Assembly (NCBI GenBank): GCA_020433785.1
Contig: JAGRCC010000238.1
Location: 1-6,724 of the forward strand
Source of the DNA: Anaerolineae bacterium
Lineage (GTDB): Bacteria; Chloroflexota; Anaerolineae; 4572-78; J111
Direction of reading: 5' to 3'
Length of the DNA stretch: 6,724 nt
Shown here: piece by piece, positions 1,163 through 6,678 of the stretch
Layout of the letters: every line of letters begins with the position of its first letter
How positions within the stretch are numbered: position 1 is the stretch's first letter
Notes under the pieces: generated by a model
What the model was told of the DNA's origin: nothing
Databases searched by the model: none
What the model saw: only the letters and a program-made list of their open reading frames with translations
Translations under genes and position numbers: made by a program

Positions 1163-1300
1163 AAATGACCATTTTATTTGATTATATCAAACCGGAATGG
1201 AGGCTTATAGAGCCAAAAGTACTTAATTTAGTTCTCGCTTAATGTACCATAGTACCTTTTCCAACTTTCCCGAAAGTACCTTGGAGCAACTAAATACTCA
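1163..1300. other. non-coding gap with repeated GTAC motifs
   Basis: No supportable ORF. The stretch has four GTAC-centred words (for example AAAGTACTT, ATGTACCAT, TAGTACCTT, AAAGTACCT) and a small palindrome ACTTTCCCGAAAGT at 1264-1277. These could be regulator sites for comM or remnants of the flank into which the adjacent hairpin-rich element inserted. No function can be assigned. Confidence 0.35.
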
Positions 1301-1301
1301 C

Positions 1302-1612
1302 ACCCTCCCCTCCCCTATTTAGCCCTGCGGGCTAAGGGGGACGATACGGGGAGCCCTTCCCTTCACCTCCAGGTCTAGCTCGCCGAGTTCTCCTGGGCGA
1401 CGCTTCGCGTCGGAATTTTCAAAATTCCAAGCATTGAATTTCAAAAATTACGAAGCGTCGTTCTTCGCCCGAGGTGCCTTAGACCATCTCCCGATGGCTT
1501 ACCTCGCAATAATGCGAGGAGCAGTTAACCCGTATGAGTGAGCCCGTCGTTTCGGTCGGGCCGGTGTCCTTCTTCCGCAATAGCGGAACCCCTACACCGG
1601 CAGGGGCCTAAG
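1302..1612 (-). ncRNA. multi-hairpin structured RNA, HEARO/omega-RNA-like, without a nuclease gene
   Basis: Read on the minus strand, about 310 nt fold into an ordered series of stems. They are: (1) GCCGGTGT/ACACCGGC arms (1594-1601 with 1560-1567) enclosing TTCCGC-TATT-GCGGAA; (2) a short CCCG/CGGG hairpin at 1543-1560; (3) CCTCGC-ATTATT-GCGAGG at 1502-1519; (4) GCCATC-GGGA-GATGG near 1484-1498, whose loop is a GNRA tetraloop only on this strand; (5) a 10-bp long-range stem CGAAGCGTCG/CGACGCTTCG (1451-1460 with 1398-1407); (6) a terminal TTAGCCC-GCA-GGGCTAA hairpin at 1319-1335. The conserved-looking joining segments (GGGTTAACTGCTCC, GGTAAGCC, GGTCTAAGGCACC) remind me of HEARO, the RNA now known as the omega-RNA of IscB/IsrB nucleases. 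That match is from memory and unverified. No HNH or RuvC ORF lies downstream; comM follows. The fold is well supported, the family only moderately. Confidence 0.55.
1312..1340. repeat. subterminal hairpin, possible IS200/IS605-like right end
   Basis: TTAGCCC (1319-1325) and GGGCTAA (1329-1335) form a perfect 7-bp hairpin with a 3-nt loop. CCCC and GGGG runs extend it across a small bulge. IS200/IS605-family elements, which mobilise IscB/TnpB-type genes, carry such imperfect hairpins near their ends and lack terminal inverted repeats. On the minus strand the next bases beyond the C/T-rich tract include GTGA (1298-1301). I recall GTGA and ATGA as flank sequences of HEARO insertions. The link to transposition is inference. 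Confidence 0.4.
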
Positions 1613-1875: not shown

Positions 1876-2000
1876 ATAACGTTTATTTGACAGTACCAAG
1901 TGGCTGGGTAAAAAGCAAGATGTAATCAAAGAATAGCCCTAACTAGCGGGATGTACATGCTTACACGGGTGCATAAATGCGTGAGTACTGGCGTGGGTAT

Positions 2001-2014
2001 ATGCACGCACGCAT
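2001..2014 (+). repeat. 14-mer repeat, copy 1
   Basis: Exact ATGCACGCACGCAT, 7 nt beyond the stop codon of the ribbon-helix-helix gene. It sits in an alternating purine-pyrimidine run (1997-2014). Degenerate relatives lie just left of it around 1951-1990. See copies at 2254, 2346 and 3556. Confidence 0.75.
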
Positions 2015-2021
2015 CCAGTCG

Positions 2022-2477
2022 TTAGCCGATTATTTTGGCCAGCATACTGCTTTCTTTCTGCTCCTCAAAATCAAGTAACAGCCAATTTAACCCCAGCCGA
2101 ACAATATCGTTTTTGCTAATTTTTTGGCCCGTATATTTTTCAAGCTCGGATTCGATAAATCGATCAATGGCGTCCAACTCCTCTGTTTTGAACCTAAATG
2201 TATAGCTGGTCAGCCTTTTCTTGTTTAGGATGGTCTCCTTCAGCCGGTTTTCTATGCGTGCGTGCATGCGTGCATTAACGCTCTTGTTGTCGATAGTCTC
2301 AGGCTGGGGTGAAGGTTCTTCTTGGTTGGATGAATTTGCGTGTTGATGCGTGCGTGCATCCATGGATGCACGCTTATCTGCATCCAGTTTATTGTCCAGT
2401 GGAGTGACGACAGCCGTGGAGGGCTGCGGTTCTTGCTGTTTCTTGGCCAGACGGAGAAAAATGTCGCTGTCACTCAT
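2022..2477 (-). CDS. ribbon-helix-helix DNA-binding protein partnered with the ATPase
   Basis: This is a 151-residue protein if translation starts at the ATG at 2475-2477, which overlaps the ATPase stop as ATGAGTGA. That arrangement implies translational coupling. An upstream ATG at 2546 is possible but would bury 77 nt inside the ATPase gene. Residues 1-85 are polar and low-complexity (many Q, P, S, N), probably disordered. Residues 87-151 fit a ribbon-helix-helix fold: strand TSYTFRF, helix A from TEELDAIDRF, helix B from SKNDIVRLGLNWLL. RHH proteins bind DNA as dimers through the strand and commonly act in partition, plasmid control or autoregulation. The peptides DARTH and ARMHARI in the disordered part are encoded by two copies of the 14-mer repeat. 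The DNA sequence there may therefore matter more than the protein. I cannot name a specific family. Confidence 0.8.
   Translation of the reverse strand: MSDSDIFLRLAKKQQEPQPSTAVVTPLDNKLDADKRASMDARTHQHANSSNQEEPSPQPETIDNKSVNARMHARIENRLKETILNKKRLTSYTFRFKTEELDAIDRFIESELEKYTGQKISKNDIVRLGLNWLLLDFEEQKESSMLAKIIG
2254..2267 (-). repeat. 14-mer repeat, copy 2 (inside the RHH gene)
   Basis: The minus strand reads exactly ATGCACGCACGCAT, within a 23-nt alternating purine-pyrimidine run (2253-2275). It encodes part of the peptide ARMHARI, in the low-complexity N-terminal half of the RHH protein and just before its DNA-binding domain. Confidence 0.75.
2346..2359 (-). repeat. 14-mer repeat, copy 3 (inside the RHH gene)
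   Basis: The minus strand reads exactly ATGCACGCACGCAT. It abuts and overlaps a 22-bp perfect palindrome (2352-2373), which brings in an inverted partial copy, GGATGCACGC, at 2364-2373. It encodes part of DARTHQH. Confidence 0.75.
2352..2373. repeat. 22-bp perfect palindrome in the RHH coding region
   Basis: The arms GCGTGCATCCA (2352-2362) and TGGATGCACGC (2363-2373) are exact reverse complements with no spacer. The palindrome is built from two inverted partial 14-mer repeats around CCATGG. It is a natural dimer-binding geometry. Confidence 0.7.
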
Positions 2478-3288
2478 GGTCAATATCTTCTTGTTGTCGA
2501 GCTTGTTCAACAAACTCGGGAATAACCTCCATTTGTTCGGCTGCATAAGTCGCTAACAAGGCAAGATCGGTTAACCGACAGATATTGCGAGGAATACCGC
2601 GTGAACTCTTGTAAATCAAATCGACCGCTTCAGCAGAAAAGGGGAAAGGGTTACTCTTACTCTGGGAAGCGATGGCCCAGCGATGCTTCATCATGTTTTC
2701 GGTTTCTTCGCGGGAGAGCGAGGAGACCGCCGCCGGGAACATCCGGGACAAAAGCTCTTTCATTTTCTTGATATTAGTAGCCAGATCCTCTTGACCGCAT
2801 AGGACGACCATTAAATAGATATCTTCATCGGTGGTGTAGGCTAACAAATAGTGGATCAGTTTCAAGCATTCCCGGTTCAAGTTTTCCGCTTCATCGACCA
2901 GCAAAACCGGGAAGAGACCTTGCTCCAGTGAGCCTTTCAGGAAGTCTACAAAATTTTTGACCGAGCCGTCAAAGCTGCGCTCGGTCTTGACGCCAAATTC
3001 CTCGTTAATCCGTCTAATGAAAGCGTTGCCGGTTTTGAGTTTGGGGACAATGACCCACTTGACCAGATTGTGTTCATCCTGGGCCAACTGTTCACCCACG
3101 ATTTTGAGCAGAGTGGTTTTACCCGAACCAATGGGGCCGAAGATAAAAATATGGCCACCTCGGTCTTTGACAAAGTAATCGATTTTCAATCTAACCTGAG
3201 AATATTGGGGCGCTTGATAGAAGAAACGCGGATTGCTGGTGATGGCGTGAAAGGGCTTCTCTAGCAGATTGAAGTGTTCCAGATACAT
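2470..3288 (-). CDS. ExeA-like AAA ATPase
   Basis: This is a 272-residue protein from the ATG at 3286-3288. The N-terminus MYLEHFNLLEKPF is the hallmark of ExeA/TniB-like ATPases, whereas an in-frame TTG at 3330 would lie next to the -35 box. Walker A GPIGSGKT is at residues 51-58, and Walker B VLLVDEAEN at 128-136 with D132/E133. The sensor-1-like LCGQ is at 163-166, a conserved arginine region (SRMF) near 181-184, and the sensor-2 motif GIPRNICRL at 231-239. Relatives work as DNA-transposition or target-site regulators, or in type II secretion assembly with peptidoglycan-binding domains. This one has no peptidoglycan-binding or membrane segment and no transposase neighbour. It instead precedes an RHH protein with an 8-nt overlap. 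Its partner is therefore probably that DNA-binding protein. ATPase identity is secure; the process it powers is unknown. Confidence 0.9.
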   Translation of the reverse strand: MYLEHFNLLEKPFHAITSNPRFFYQAPQYSQVRLKIDYFVKDRGGHIFIFGPIGSGKTTLLKIVGEQLAQDEHNLVKWVIVPKLKTGNAFIRRINEEFGVKTERSFDGSVKNFVDFLKGSLEQGLFPVLLVDEAENLNRECLKLIHYLLAYTTDEDIYLMVVLCGQEDLATNIKKMKELLSRMFPAAVSSLSREETENMMKHRWAIASQSKSNPFPFSAEAVDLIYKSSRGIPRNICRLTDLALLATYAAEQMEVIPEFVEQARQQEDIDHE

Positions 3289-3297
3289 GTTAAAGAC

Positions 3298-3327
3298 ATC
3301 ATAGTCATAATGGGTCGACTTTGTCAA
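3298..3327 (-). promoter_or_regulatory. promoter of the ATPase/RHH operon, near-leaderless
   Basis: On the minus strand, a perfect TTGACA (3322-3327) and TATGAT (3298-3303) are separated by 18 nt. The predicted start is near 3291, only about 3 nt before the ATG at 3288. No Shine-Dalgarno is visible, so a leaderless mRNA is likely. Confidence 0.65.
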
Positions 3328-3345
3328 CAAGTATCATTAGTTGAC
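3323..3345. promoter_or_regulatory. possible operator over the ATPase -35 box
   Basis: GTCAAC (3323-3328) and GTTGAC (3340-3345) are inverted repeats with 11 bp between them. The left arm lies inside the -35 element. Two copies of ACTTTTGG, 30 bp apart (3350-3357, 3380-3387), lie just upstream. Occupancy of this site would block the operon promoter. Which protein binds is not known; the RHH product is one candidate. Confidence 0.4.
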
Positions 3346-3407
3346 CACAACTTTTGGGGGTGTCCTTAAAGTTGCTATCACTTTTGGTATGAGGCCCTTC
3401 GATTGAT

Positions 3408-3430
3408 TACGTGTGTGCGTACATACACGC
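3408..3430. repeat. 23-nt alternating purine-pyrimidine tract
   Basis: Unbroken purine-pyrimidine alternation upstream of the ATPase promoter, related to but not containing the exact 14-mer. A further related cluster, with GACGCATC and GATGCATGC, follows at 3439-3458. The rest of 3346-3537 has no supportable gene. Confidence 0.55.
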
Positions 3431-3537
3431 TTTCATTGACGCATCGATAGATGCATGCCCAGATTCGTCGTCAATTGTAGTTTGGTGGCGGAAGGTATTC
3501 AGTCTGCCTAATGAACAGTAATCCAATTTTTGGTAGG

Positions 3538-3569
3538 GTATACGCGTATGCATGTATGCACGCACGCAT
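3538..3569. repeat. 32-nt alternating tract with 14-mer copy 4
   Basis: Positions 3538-3569 alternate purine and pyrimidine without a break. The last 14 nt (3556-3569) are the exact plus-strand ATGCACGCACGCAT. It lies about 270 bp upstream of the ATPase start. With copy 1 at 2001 it brackets the ATPase/RHH pair, both outer copies pointing the same way. Confidence 0.75.
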
Positions 3570-3665
3570 TTATGTTGACAAGCGTACGTCCGTATAAATA
3601 TTTATGTTTCAAATTTGATACGATAACGGTTAGTAATCTCAAGAAGGAGAGGGTTAGCTATCGTA

Positions 3666-3734
3666 TTGACTGTGCTATTGGCTATGGGATTGCTTCTGTT
3701 TTTGGTTCTGCTTTTTGAAAAGCAGAGTCAATAG
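3666..3734 (+). CDS. possible very small single-pass membrane peptide
   Basis: From the TTG at 3666 the frame gives 22 residues. They include a core such as LLAMGLLLFLVLLF followed by the polar tail EKQSQ and a TAG stop. That is the profile of a one-helix membrane peptide, like type I toxins or small regulatory peptides. An AAGGAG-like sequence at 3644-3649 is a good Shine-Dalgarno but lies about 16 nt from the TTG, farther than usual. A TTGACA at 3575-3580 could belong to a promoter, though its -10 is poor. The 3' part overlaps nested inverted repeats. Chance hydrophobic frames occur in T-rich DNA, so this is tentative. Confidence 0.25.
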   Translation: MTVLLAMGLLLFLVLLFEKQSQ

Positions 3735-3736
3735 CA
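3673..3736. repeat. nested inverted repeats
   Basis: Outer arms TGCTATTG (3673-3680) and CAATAGCA (3729-3736) enclose inner arms CTGCTTTT (3708-3715) and AAAAGCAG (3718-3725). The set lies at the boundary between the A/T-rich gap and the GC-rich block. It could fold the end of a plus-strand transcript or a read-through from the minus-strand terminator at 3762-3801. Confidence 0.5.
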
Positions 3737-3761
3737 GACCTGCTCAGGACTTTGCGCGCAG

Positions 3762-3801
3762 AAAAAAGCCAGCAGCGGGGCATCGAACCCCGCTCCTGGC
3801 T
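3762..3801 (-). terminator. long intrinsic terminator with a T-loop-like loop
   Basis: On the minus strand, AGCCAGGAGCGGGG pairs with CCCCGCTGCTGGCT. The stem is 14 bp with one mismatch and the loop is TTCGATG. Six T residues follow (3762-3767). The loop and its closing pairs match the GGTTCRANNCC form of a tRNA T-arm, but no other tRNA arms are present. It marks the 3' end of the structured minus-strand RNA. Confidence 0.8.
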
Positions 3802-4231
3802 CCGAGAAGGAAACCATCCCCGCTCGGGCACCCCCATTTATGCCCTGCTTTAGCCCAGAACCGCCCTATTTTGGGCCAAAATCCCGCTTCTGACCGGCAG
3901 GGCACCAGGGGGCACCACTCGACGGGGCTGCGCGCCGGTCGGCCTTCTGCTCTTCCCGTTGGTCGTTTGAAGCCCGACTGCCCCCGCCTGCTTTGACGCC
4001 ACAGCCTCCGTTCCGTTTCACTCCACTCCGGCCGCGTCGCCAAAGCATCCCACGGCTGCGGTAACAGCGTTGGGGTTACCGCAGCCGGGGACAGGGGCGG
4101 GGGCAGTCGGCCTTACAGGCCGACCGGCGCGCGGGTGCACTGGCGTGACGCCCTTTTGCGGGGGCCGGGCATTCCTTCTCGGGCTCTTCCTTCCCGGCCC
4201 CCGCCTGGCCGGCACTCTTCGTGCCAGCCAG
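3768..4231 (-). ncRNA. large structured non-coding RNA of unknown class
   Basis: A GC-rich block holds exact long complements that nest. GCGCGCCGGTCGGCC (3930-3944) pairs with 4118-4132 over 15 bp. Inside it CCGACTGCCCCCGCC (3974-3988) pairs with 4096-4110 over 15 bp. Inside that, GGCTGCGGTAAC (4054-4065) pairs with 4075-4086 over 12 bp. A GACGC/GCGTC stem with flanking CTTT/AAAG (about 3992-4047) makes a multi-branch junction. Upstream on the minus strand are a 12-bp stem (4158-4169 with 4193-4204) and an 11-bp hairpin (4205-4215 with 4221-4231). The latter's single mismatch is a G-U wobble only on the minus strand. The terminator at 3762-3801 is also minus-strand. ORFs across it have unlikely composition and conflict between frames. 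I do not recognise RNase P, tmRNA, SRP RNA, 6S or a group II intron. The 5' end is uncertain and could lie nearer 4340. Confidence 0.55.
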
Positions 4232-4347
4232 TCCTGACGAAACGGCTGGTGATTGTCCCCAAATCCCGTACATTATCCTACCTTCGGATAGTTCATTGCT
4301 TATATTCCACCCTGTCGTCCTCAGTCTCAACCATACCCAAACATTTC
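4232..4347. other. gap between the structured RNA and the 168-residue gene
   Basis: No ORF. On the minus strand there are A/T-richer words (ATATAAG near 4300, GGATAATG near 4275) that could serve as -10 elements for the structured RNA, but no convincing -35. The RNA may therefore have its own weak promoter here or be the 3' part of the transcript of the gene ending at 4348. Confidence 0.3.
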
Positions 4348-4854
4348 CTAGACCCGTAGGTTTTGCCTCCACTCGTCGAGGCGCTGCCGATCATACTCCG
4401 CGACCTCTTCCGGCCAGGTGGTTATCATATATTCGCAAGCCGCTACATAAGCCCGCGTCATGGCCAGGCCCATCGGCACCAGTCCAAAGGCGAGATGATG
4501 GGTGTCGGGTGGCTCCGTCTTGAGCCTGTGGTAGACCGCCTCAACCGGCCAATGCCGGCCGGGGAAGTAGGCGACCTCATACCTCCCACAGTCGGCATAG
4601 TCGATGTCGATAACCTGGTCATGCTGAGTGACCCAACCGTGAGCCGCGACCCGATGATAGGGGAGGGGAGCCGCCTCGTGGTGGTAGACGGTAAAGCCTT
4701 CGGTGTAGACCGGCCGGTGTGAGGGGGCCAGGCGGTTGAGGCGAAACAAGGCGCGGAGGGCGTTGAAGAAGCATTGGCCAAAATCCTCATCGCCGGGATC
4801 AACATACATCCGTTTGGCCAGATGATCCGTTAGTGCCTTATCAATTCGTAGCAT
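4348..4854 (-). CDS. hypothetical protein with a cysteine-hydrolase-like Cys/Glu/His/Asp pattern
   Basis: The protein has 168 residues, with no signal peptide or membrane segment. Motifs in order are QCFFNAL with C28 near the start of a helix, YTEGF with E52, AAHGWV with H72, and VIDIDYADC with D83/D85. This C...NA...EG...H(G/A)W...D order recurs in small phage and accessory-genome proteins thought to have a papain- or transglutaminase-like fold. That would make C28, H72 and D83 or D85 a catalytic set. The assignment is by pattern only. The start is the ATG at 4852-4854, just behind an extended -10, so the mRNA is probably leaderless. It is divergent from the toxin-antitoxin operon and points toward the large structured RNA. 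Substrate and role are unknown. Confidence 0.7.
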   Translation of the reverse strand: MLRIDKALTDHLAKRMYVDPGDEDFGQCFFNALRALFRLNRLAPSHRPVYTEGFTVYHHEAAPLPYHRVAAHGWVTQHDQVIDIDYADCGRYEVAYFPGRHWPVEAVYHRLKTEPPDTHHLAFGLVPMGLAMTRAYVAACEYMITTWPEEVAEYDRQRLDEWRQNLRV

Positions 4855-4898: not shown

Positions 4899-4927
4899 TT
4901 GCATCCGGTTTTCGGAAATGTCATAAT
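4899..4927 (+). promoter_or_regulatory. promoter of the toxin-antitoxin operon, leaderless
   Basis: TTGCAT (4899-4904) and CATAAT (4922-4927) are 17 nt apart. The predicted start is at about 4934, next to the ATG at 4935. Toxin-antitoxin promoters are usually repressed by the antitoxin or the complex. The 80-bp divergent interval 4855-4934 is the natural operator region and would also affect the opposite gene. Confidence 0.55.
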
Positions 4928-4934
4928 AGCCTTA

Positions 4935-5267
4935 ATGATTACAACTACCACCTATGTCGGCGTCAATGAAGCTCGCAGTCGGTTTTCTGACCTGGTCAAC
5001 CAGGTGTGTTATGGCGGAAAACAGGTGGTGGTCACCTCACGGGGGCGTCCCAAAGTAGCGATTGTCACCTTAAGGGCTGCTCAAGACCGCCGCTTATCCG
5101 CAGAAACTACGCCATTGAGACATAAGCGACAGGCGGCTCTCAAGAAACTCGATCAAAACTATCAGGCTCTTCAGCAGGAAACACACGGTCAATTACCTGA
5201 CCCGGTAGAAATCCTGCATCAGCTACGCCATGAACGGACCCAACAACTCCTCGGTCATCTGCGTTGA
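4935..5267 (+). CDS. Phd/YefM-type antitoxin of a type II toxin-antitoxin pair
   Basis: The protein is 110 residues from the ATG at 4935. An in-frame TTG at 4899 overlaps the promoter -35 and is less likely. The N-terminal domain VGVNEARSRFSDLVNQV...GKQVVVTSRGRPKVAIVTL (residues 8-46) is the classic Phd/YefM DNA-binding and dimerisation fold. The charged C-terminal half (residues 55-110, rich in Q, K, R, L) would wrap and neutralise the toxin. Its gene overlaps the toxin gene by 38 nt, so the two are translationally coupled. It is expected to repress its own promoter. The C-terminal tail is rather long for the family, which often ends near 80-90 residues. Confidence 0.88.
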   Translation: MITTTTYVGVNEARSRFSDLVNQVCYGGKQVVVTSRGRPKVAIVTLRAAQDRRLSAETTPLRHKRQAALKKLDQNYQALQQETHGQLPDPVEILHQLRHERTQQLLGHLR

Positions 5268-5685
5268 TGCCAGTTTAGTTTTACGCATGGCGTTAGGCGG
5301 ACCTTATCGATCTGCCGTACGGGAACTGTGGTCGCAGTGGGTAGAGCAGGGGAGCGCCTTCATTGCGCCGCCCTTGTTTGCTTTTGAAGTGACCTCAACT
5401 CTCTGGCAAAACGTTTATCATCACCGGATTTCCTTGGAGCGCGGGCAAGCTATCTTTGAGAATATCTTCGAGCAGGGGATTACCCTCGAATATCCTCCCG
5501 ATTTACACCGGCACGCCTGGCAGATTGCCCAGCAATTCAACCTTCACGCCGCGTATGATGCCCATTATGTGGCCCTGGCTCAGCAATTCAAGTGTGAGTT
5601 CTGGACGATGGATGTGCGTTGCTATCAAGCCTTGCATAAAAAACTACCGTGGGTGAAGACGGTAGCCGATCCTACCAACAAGTAG
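5230..5685 (+). CDS. vapC: PIN-domain toxin (VapC-like RNase)
   Basis: This 151-residue protein has the four acidic residues of a PIN nuclease active site in the usual order. They are D13 in VICVDASL, E53 in AFEVTST, D110 in AAYDAHYVALA and D128 in WTMDVR. VapC-type toxins use a Mg or Mn ion bound by these residues to cut specific RNAs, often tRNA or rRNA, and stop growth when the antitoxin is lost. The ATG at 5230 lies within the antitoxin gene, and no later start precedes D13. All catalytic residues are intact, so it is probably active. A hairpin at the end of the gene (CTACCG/CGGTAG near 5644-5665) lacks a T-tract, so the operon has no clear terminator. The target RNA cannot be inferred. 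Confidence 0.9.
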   Translation: MNGPNNSSVICVDASLVLRMALGGPYRSAVRELWSQWVEQGSAFIAPPLFAFEVTSTLWQNVYHHRISLERGQAIFENIFEQGITLEYPPDLHRHAWQIAQQFNLHAAYDAHYVALAQQFKCEFWTMDVRCYQALHKKLPWVKTVADPTNK

Positions 5686-5898
5686 AGTACTTCAGAAACA
5701 TCCTCCTCAGCCCTTGTCAGATTCCCGATATCGAAGTTTTTGACGTCATCCTAGCTCCTCTCCTGTTGGGAAAAGTAAGGGTTCCATATCGGTCGCCAAT
5801 TTGCCATAGTGGAAACACTTTGGCTCTTTGACAATTTGGTTTGGTTTTATGAGGTGTGTTTGGACTGAGGTTGAAAATAAAATATCGGAGTTAGTTGC
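5686..5898. other. non-coding gap downstream of the toxin gene
   Basis: I see no supportable gene on either strand. A minus-strand ORF crossing this gap starts inside the antisense of the gene at 6007 and has no ribosome binding site. A TTGACA at 5828-5833 is followed by TATGAG after only 14 nt, a weak promoter candidate for the structured leader at 5899-5990. Confidence 0.4.
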
Positions 5899-6006: not shown

Positions 6007-6678
6007 ATGTTTCACACCATTGAATTCGGCCGTCTGTCCGCCATGCTGGTGGACTTCATCGACCATGCGGACGGCTTGTGGTTTCTGCGCTGGGTCGGTC
6101 CGGAGCCAACGGTCAACGCCATTTGGGCGCGGCTGTCGGCCCGAGAATACCGGGGCCAGAAATGGAAGACGGGAGTAATAATTCCCATTCCCGGTCGGAG
6201 CTACCCGGAGCGGGTGGGGCTGGCCAAACAGATCACCTATCGCACCCTGCGCCAGCGATTGCCTTCAGGGATGATTGACCTGGCGTTAGTGCATCCTGGT
6301 CTGACGGTCAGCGAGGACAAGCCGGAAGGCTTTTATTTACTGACCTACGAAGCTGGCCGGCCGACCGGTTTTTACGACCGGCTTAATGCGTGCCTGACGA
6401 TCCCACTCAAACCGGATTGGGCCGCGTGGCTCTGGACTCAAGGGCAAAGACCCTTTACCAGGTCTGTCAGCAACGCCAGTGAGTCGGGGGAGAGGGCAGC
6501 AGCGGTCGAAGATGAATCTTCGGCCGAACTCATCGTCACCCCCATTGTTGAAATCACCGGGTTAGGCTTGGTGACCTGCTATCAGGTCAAAACCGGGGAT
6601 AGCTACAAAGAGGCCTGGTTATCGGTGATTCGAGACCAACTGGGGTGGGGTCACGCTGGTTGTGACAGCAAGGAGTGA
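6007..6678 (+). CDS. hypothetical protein, 223 residues
   Basis: The ATG at 6007 follows a strong GGAGG (5997-6001) with 5-nt spacing, so the start is well supported. I recognise no family. The protein is soluble, with no signal peptide or membrane helix. It is rich in aromatic residues (LWFLRWVG near 24-31, WAAWLWTQ near 138-145). A positively charged middle part includes REYRGQKWKTG and RQRLPSG. An acidic, Ser/Ala-rich linker at about residues 153-174 separates a short C-terminal segment, ending LGWGHAGCDSKE. This suggests two modules. The stop overlaps the Shine-Dalgarno of the next gene, so the two form an operon. Small uncharacterised proteins of this style are common in plasmid and integrative-element cargo. 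The function is unknown. Confidence 0.75.
   Translation: MFHTIEFGRLSAMLVDFIDHADGLWFLRWVGPEPTVNAIWARLSAREYRGQKWKTGVIIPIPGRSYPERVGLAKQITYRTLRQRLPSGMIDLALVHPGLTVSEDKPEGFYLLTYEAGRPTGFYDRLNACLTIPLKPDWAAWLWTQGQRPFTRSVSNASESGERAAAVEDESSAELIVTPIVEITGLGLVTCYQVKTGDSYKEAWLSVIRDQLGWGHAGCDSKE

What the first reader, a model, noticed from the sequence alone, without database searches (positions are those of the whole stretch)
3768..4231. Large, previously unassigned structured RNA
Three nested perfect stems (15, 15 and 12 bp), two further stems of 11-12 bp and a multi-branch junction lie within about 465 nt. They end at a strong minus-strand terminator. The single mismatch in the 4205-4231 hairpin is a G-U pair only on the minus strand, matching the terminator's strand. 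The stretch is far more GC-rich than its flanks. I could not match it to RNase P, tmRNA, SRP RNA, 6S or group II introns. Its size and complexity resemble large bacterial RNAs such as GOLLD, ROOL or OLE, though I see no specific match.
Basis: partly seen in the sequence, partly recalled or inferred. Interest (0 to 1): 0.78.

Follow-up and report, generated by a model that had tools for sequence, protein, structure and literature searches.

The report
New large structured RNA, plasmid-like element
A roughly 500-nucleotide folded RNA, unmatched in the public library of RNA families, sits beside partition-like genes of plasmid-like elements in Chloroflexota bacteria, and a distant relative keeps its shape while changing its letters; what it does is unproven.

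Summary
The minus strand at about 4265-3762 encodes a ~500-nt structured RNA: shuffle z -9.7, terminator hairpin with six U, no credible Rfam match. Two relatives were accepted: L001 (Anaerolineae MAG, 72% identity, colinear) and L036 (genome G154, core only). Pairs predicted from the window alone are kept in L001 beyond shuffled partners (127 of 156 against 114 expected; 11 double changes against 3.2; 0 of 2000 shuffles), unlike two coding controls. No codon periodicity. New details: an 11-bp loop-linker pseudoknot with one compensatory change, and a near-invariant core whose strands can pair in two exclusive ways. All three copies lie beside partition-like genes. I favour a role in element maintenance or replication; this is inferred, and related HTH/iteron modules occur without an accepted RNA. 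It is rare: accepted in 2 of 396 class genomes; no blastn match in plasmids or phages (window RNA only), no exact pattern match in viral contigs.

The parts
3762..4265 (-). whole structured RNA (5' end near 4265 inferred from a -10-like GATAAT at 4277-4272; 3' end at the poly-U)
   Evidence: 5' end inferred
4205..4231 (-). H0 hairpin; one double and one one-sided change against L001 in the 9 pairs compared
4158..4204 (-). H1 hairpin (12 bp) with a conserved purine-rich 23-nt apical loop
4172..4182 (-). pseudoknot strand 1 in the H1 loop (CCGAGAAGGAA)
3802..3812 (-). pseudoknot strand 2 in the linker before the terminator hairpin (UUCCUUCUCGG); 11 of 11 pairs, one compensatory C-G to U-A in L001, 10 pairs invariant
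4117..4132 (-). P1 5' strand (pairs with 3945-3930); 3 of the 12 pairs compared in three homologues change on both sides, the inner 8 are invariant
3930..3945 (-). P1 3' strand
4106..4124 (-). HP1: GUCGGCCU-GUA-AGGCCGAC, the same in 3 of 3 homologues but for one loop base; alternative partner of the P1 and S2 strands
4096..4114 (-). S2/P3 5' strand (pairs with 3988-3970); invariant in the 12 pairs compared, one of them a G.G mismatch
3970..3988 (-). S2/P3 3' strand
3938..3978 (-). P4 hairpin (3978-3969 with 3947-3938): two double changes in L036, one G.G mismatch kept in three homologues
4047..4092 (-). H3 inner hairpin (one double change against L001)
3990..4046 (-). H4 inner hairpin (two double changes against L001, one A.G mismatch in both)
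3813..3928 (-). H5 3' rod-like domain
3762..3801 (-). H6 terminator hairpin with the 7-nt loop UUCGAUG (T-loop-like, from recall) kept while 4 of 13 compared stem pairs change on both sides; followed by six U
4348..4854 (-). 168-aa gene of unknown function directly upstream on the same strand; a relative is upstream of the RNA in L001
2470..3330 (-). AAA ATPase (AAA_22) gene downstream of the RNA
2022..2546 (-). 174-aa gene with a ribbon-helix-helix-like C-terminus (by eye; no Pfam hit)

Best explanation
Shown: a structured element of ~500 nt, unmatched in Rfam, best read as RNA on the minus strand. Its anatomy is H0, H1 (loop pseudoknotted to the 3' linker), a junction core (P1, HP1, S2/P3, P4, H3, H4), a 3' rod (H5) and a terminator hairpin (H6). 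Inferred: it is transcribed and acts as RNA in the maintenance of its element, most likely on replication, partition or copy control, because in 3 of 3 loci it lies next to a partition-like module, and in 2 of 3 its 3' end points into an AT-rich stretch with iteron-like repeats. Inferred too: the core can switch between two long helices and two local hairpins around a near-invariant four-strand sequence, which could give an on/off state, while the pseudoknot ties the 5' domain to the terminator.
For: Covariation between independently folded homologues, absent from two coding controls; an RNAalifold consensus in which 13 pairs differ on both sides and stay paired, 3 of them in the poorly aligned 5' end; one P1 pair with three pair types in three homologues; no coding signal; pseudoknot shuffle p 0.0025 (window) and 0.006 (L001) with a compensatory pair; states A and B differ by 9.4, 8.0 and 8.0 kcal/mol in the three cores; RNA-strand consensus more stable than the opposite strand (-204.0 against -175.6). 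Context: ParA, an RHH-like protein (by eye) and an HTH_36 protein in L036, with relatives in L001; an AAA ATPase and an RHH-like protein in the window; three 22-bp direct repeats at 22-bp spacing between RNA and HTH gene in both L001 and L036. An HTH relative lies near AAA-ATPase and ParB genes of a complete Chloroflexota plasmid. Precedent: regions next to parABS that express a noncoding RNA are needed for stable lysogeny of two mycobacteriophages (PMC7157519, section 10).
Against: Three homologues only, and L036 shares only the core, with a model score (25.3 bits) hardly above a rejected hit in a coding gene (24.6). In one search, 29 of 156 and 26 of 157 scored pairs break, and the opposite strand passes the test as well. 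Stretches of 9-15 kb around HTH genes of G038, G018 and G048 gave no accepted R1 match (best: 53 nt, 13.7 bits, E 0.008, in L044, shorter and weaker than a spurious 54-nt hit of 14.6 bits inside the window RNA), though repeats like iterons are there in 3 of 4 loci, so the RNA is not an obligatory part of such a module. The region after the HTH gene of the Chlorohelix plasmid shows no iteron array. The window has no HTH gene and no matching 22-bp repeats. No expression data; the promoter scan listed no minus-strand site. L001 lacks the U-run after H6.
Confidence: 0.58

Rival explanations
1. A trans-acting architectural RNA carried as cargo (as GOLLD or ROOL are by phages), self-assembling or binding host proteins, with no role in replication.
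For: Size and complexity, loop-linker pseudoknot, element-borne, no accepted match in some related replicons; GOLLD and ROOL are encoded in phages and prophages and form homo-oligomers (PMC12286853, passages seen).
Against: No Rfam match to GOLLD, ROOL or OLE, no tRNA genes in the window or in the stretches of L001's and L036's contigs examined, and a repeated position beside partition-like modules that cargo would not need.
Confidence: 0.22
2. A single-stranded DNA structure (transfer origin, single-strand origin or recombination site) rather than a transcript.
For: Covariation is seen when either strand is folded; GTCGGCCT/AGGCCGAC is a DNA palindrome; the G154 element carries serine recombinase, ArdC and RadC domains.
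Against: G-U pairs and stability favour one strand, clearly in window and L001, hardly in L036; a terminator with poly-U in the window; a 500-nt multi-domain fold would be unusual for such sites (recalled).
Confidence: 0.12
3. A structured 3' untranslated region or attenuator of the upstream small gene.
For: An upstream reading frame on the same strand close before the RNA in 3 of 3 loci: about 70 nt before H0 in L001 and about 28 nt before P1 in L036.
Against: In L036 the upstream frame is a 189-aa ORF without a Pfam hit that by eye is unlike the 168-aa protein, while the RNA core is kept.
Confidence: 0.07
4. Chance or decayed inverted repeats without function.
For: Only three copies known.
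Against: z -9.7 and covariation with 0 of 2000 shuffles reaching it.
Confidence: 0.02

Closest known systems
GOLLD / ROOL / OLE large ornate RNAs
   Same: Size class, several domains, pseudoknot; GOLLD and ROOL are borne by phages and prophages, functions poorly understood (PMC12286853, passages seen)
   Different: No covariance-model match, no tRNA genes nearby, next to partition-like genes
parABS-adjacent RNA origins of extrachromosomal mycobacteriophage prophages; ColE1 RNA II
   Same: Noncoding RNA region of similar size next to partition genes (PMC7157519: abstract, passages and section 10 seen)
   Different: No sequence match of the window RNA in the phage collection; an HTH/iteron-like module is present in two of our loci; replication role untested here
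Iteron plasmid origins (initiator plus direct repeats)
   Same: HTH_36 protein and 22-bp direct repeats next to the RNA in L001 and L036
   Different: Such origins do not normally include a 500-nt structured RNA (recalled); related modules here have no accepted copy

Membership tests
GOLLD / ROOL / OLE (Rfam) | match to the Rfam covariance model | tested here: not met
   window cmscan at E up to 1 with permissive filters: only mir-737 at 0.41; L002 (the L001 copy) and L037 (its HTH-centred locus in G154): none
GOLLD / ROOL | encoded in phages or prophages, often near tRNA islands | tested here: not met
   no tRNA gene in the window, L047, L048 or L036; no match in phages and no exact pattern match in viral contigs
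GOLLD / ROOL / OLE | homo-oligomeric assembly | not testable with these tools
   needs cryo-EM or native gels
RNA-based replication origin (ColE1 RNA II / mycobacteriophage ori RNA) | structured noncoding region next to partition-like genes | tested here: met
   3 of 3 loci by position; that the window's AAA-RHH pair is a partition system is inferred
RNA-based replication origin | the region is transcribed and needed for autonomous replication | not testable with these tools
   needs RNA-seq and minireplicon assays
RNA-based replication origin | sequence homology to known members | tested here: not met
   window RNA: no blastn match in phages or plasmids; L001 and L036 RNA: none in plasmids, not run against phages
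Protein-coding gene | codon periodicity and a conserved frame | tested here: not met

The most novel reading that the evidence does not exclude
A new class of mobile-element RNA whose core is a branch-migrating four-strand switch: strands built on GUCGGCC/GGCCGAC pair either as two long helices or as two local hairpins, and the choice, locked by a loop-linker pseudoknot at the terminator, controls replication or copy number of integrative plasmid-like elements in Chloroflexota.
Probability: 0.15. Interest if true: 0.85.

Novelty: new variant of a known kind. Interest (0 to 1): 0.62.

Why it matters
Few bacterial RNAs of this size and complexity are known and several of them have no settled function (PMC12286853, passages). 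This one comes with covariation support, a precise pair list and a consistent genomic address beside partition-like modules, so its role is directly testable: delete or mutate the named stems in a minireplicon and measure copy number and stability.

Tried and rejected
One search gave blastn hits in 29 of 396 class genomes; I accept G001 and G154 and reject the other 27. I read the sequence around 12 of the loci by eye: L006 (the G154 locus) is a core homologue, the other 11 I judged not to be; the remaining loci I saw only as short blastn alignments. Pattern hits L033 and L034 lie in protein-like frames. R1 gave matches at E <= 1 in 12 of 396 genomes; I accept two. L051-L053 lie in long open frames with scattered mispairing; of the other seven I looked at L058 only. 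Of the hits to the L036 query (6 of 366 genomes), L062 and L064 are G154 and G001 themselves; L063 and L065-L068 were read and rejected by eye. A GC-rich stretch after the HTH gene of G038 was considered and rejected: z -0.9, no R1 match there. R1 on 14 viral loci around HTH relatives gave five weak short rows (best E 0.043, 76 nt), rejected; motif strings were found only in isolation. Coding frames were rejected. mir-737 was rejected as chance. One row (H5 outer) compares columns that I offset by hand and is not used. The block at 1295-1573 gave no consistent covariation signal (p 0.04 to 0.97, eight values from four folds). Alignment A2 misaligned the 3' end of L036, so the three-way counts come from hand-named strands, which leans towards the structure. 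The G-U strand argument (24 against 10) is partly circular, since each count is made on the fold of its own strand. Searches by genome: 396 of the class (apparently the same draw), 366, 25 and 7 in two orders, 400 of the phylum by exact pattern only.

Full report
Observation. The stems described are present and far more than chance: the minus strand of 3740-4245 folds at -310.7 kcal/mol, z -9.68, and 0 of 100 dinucleotide shuffles are as stable; the other strand (3760-4245) gives -263.1, z -7.02. A second set of 40 shuffles each gave z -12.2 and -6.8 for the two strands of the window RNA, -11.3 and -8.4 for L001, -6.0 and -5.8 for L036, so strand preference is clear in two of three. The hairpin 3801-3767 is followed by six U. 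A 504-nt transcript from about 4265 to 3762 fits; its 5' end rests on a -10-like GATAAT seen by eye, which the promoter scan did not list.

Relatives. No blastn match in plasmids or, for the window RNA, in phages, and no Rfam family. A scan of genome contigs with the neighbouring 168-aa protein gave one locus, L001, in an Anaerolineae MAG. It holds the RNA (blastn 71.7% over 540 columns, window 3701-4213, E 8e-70) in the same order as the window: 223-aa gene, 168-aa gene, RNA, partition-like module, second conserved block. A search of 396 genomes of the class gave 29 with some blastn hit at E <= 0.01; I accept two, G001 (L001's own genome) and G154 (L036). L036 keeps the core (P1, HP1, S2/P3, P4) and a stable inner domain of similar length but other sequence. 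The covariance model R1, built from two sequences, scored L036 at 25.3 bits, hardly above a rejected hit in a coding gene (24.6), so L036 rests on the match of the four core strands and on its setting rather than on that score. R1 and exact patterns gave no further copy that I accept.

Covariation. I folded each sequence alone and asked whether the other keeps the pairs. Window to L001: of 173 pairs 17 had gaps and were set aside; 127 of 156 are canonical against 114.2 expected, 11 double changes against 3.16, 29 broken; 0 of 2000 shuffles reach either value. L001 to window: 131 of 157 against 121.1, 10 double against 2.97, 26 broken, 8 set aside; 0 of 2000. Two coding genes in both directions show no excess (p 0.18 to 0.97). 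The opposite strand of the RNA also passes, as expected for Watson-Crick exchanges, so this test shows structure but not strand. The RNAalifold consensus has 130 pairs; 13 differ on both sides and stay paired, 3 of them in the poorly aligned 5' end; on the opposite strand the consensus is weaker (-204.0 against -175.6). RNAalifold chooses pairs that fit both rows, so one search is the stronger test.

Details beyond the finding. (1) The H1 apical loop pairs over 11 of 11 bases with the linker before the terminator in both window and L001, with one C-G to U-A exchange; shuffled loop and linker reach 11 pairs in 0.25% and 0.6% of 20000 cases. No counterpart was established in L036. (2) H6 keeps its 7-nt loop UUCGAUG while 4 of 13 compared stem pairs change on both sides; the loop fits the T-loop consensus as I recall it. 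L001 has no U-run after H6. (3) The core: GUCGGCCU-GNA-AGGCCGAC is identical in three homologues but for N, while 3 of 12 P1 pairs change on both sides (one with three pair types) and 2 of 10 P4 pairs do. The strands can form long P1 plus S2, or HP1 plus P4; forced into the second state the three cores cost 9.4, 8.0 and 8.0 kcal/mol. Mutually exclusive pairing would explain the invariance, but a G.G mismatch kept in S2 and P4 shows that pairing is not the only constraint; protein recognition would do as well.

Coding. Substitutions fall evenly on the three positions (27, 22, 26%) against 28/31/61% and 33/27/52% in the neighbouring genes, and 7 of 9 indels are not multiples of three. The longest frame on the RNA strand of L001 has no homologue at E <= 0.01 in the protein collection.

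Setting. In L036 the RNA is convergent with genes for ParA, an RHH-like protein (by eye) and an HTH_36 protein; L001 has relatives in the same order. Between RNA and HTH gene both have three 22-bp direct repeats at 22-bp spacing, and two shorter repeats (16 nt in L001, 12 nt in L036) at 16-bp spacing that share sequence. HTH relatives were found in 5 of 396 class genomes; in G038, G018 and one of two G048 loci, 23-24-bp spaced repeats follow the gene, the other G048 locus shows no clear array, and 9-15 kb around them gave no accepted R1 match. A weaker HTH relative stands third after a ParB gene, itself after an AAA ATPase gene, on a complete Chloroflexota plasmid; no iteron array was found behind it. 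In the window the same place is taken by an AAA ATPase and an RHH-like gene in the other orientation. In G154 a serine recombinase gene begins where the yifB frame loses likeness after about 32 codons, which suggests an element integrated in yifB; the rest of that yifB was not sought. The window also has yifB near one end, unbroken at that point.

Function. Position beside partition-like modules of two types, in 3 of 3 loci, makes a maintenance or replication role the most likely reading; mycobacteriophage prophages give a precedent, where regions next to parA that express a noncoding RNA are needed for stable lysogeny (PMC7157519, section 10). It is an inference: HTH/iteron-like modules without an accepted copy show that the RNA is not an obligatory origin part. 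A cargo RNA of GOLLD/ROOL style is the main rival.

Literature. Searches for GOLLD/ROOL, for Chloroflexi or Anaerolineae structured RNAs, and for structured noncoding RNA near plasmid partition genes listed no paper that, by title and start of abstract, describes this RNA; the lists were cut at 10 of 1,276 and 10 of 130 papers, and the listed surveys were not read.

Noticed in passing
window 1295-1573 (minus), L001 8184-8441: A second conserved noncoding block (71% identity) flanks the partition-like module on its other side; in one hairpin three pairs change on both sides, but the whole-block test is not consistent. Found in 1 of 5 genomes searched (G001), not in plasmids.
   Followed up: partly
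window 1953-2014, 2254-2275, 2346-2372, 3403-3443, 3540-3576: ATGCACGCACGCAT-like direct and inverted repeats around, and inside, the RHH-like gene: possible binding sites of a partition protein.
   Followed up: no
L001 6236-6407; L036 10512-10645: Iteron-like arrays: 3 x 22 bp at 22-bp spacing, and two shorter repeats at 16-bp spacing whose sequence (CTGAGTATTTTT) is shared by the two elements.
   Followed up: partly
L048 3992-6128: A large serine recombinase gene begins where the yifB frame loses likeness after about codon 32: possible integration site.
   Followed up: partly
window 2022-3330 against L001 6418-8060: Partition-like modules of different type and orientation (AAA-RHH; ParA-RHH-HTH) lie between the same conserved flanks.
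   Followed up: partly
window 4899-5685: Phd/YefM antitoxin and PIN-domain toxin pair.
   Followed up: no
window 6007-6678: 223-aa protein of no Pfam family, conserved in L001 (283 aa), with a weakly conserved block at 5799-5852 upstream (73%, E 0.017).
   Followed up: no
window 3693-3740: AT-rich hairpin just downstream of the RNA, partly inside the stretch aligned to L001; it matched mir-737 by chance.
   Followed up: no
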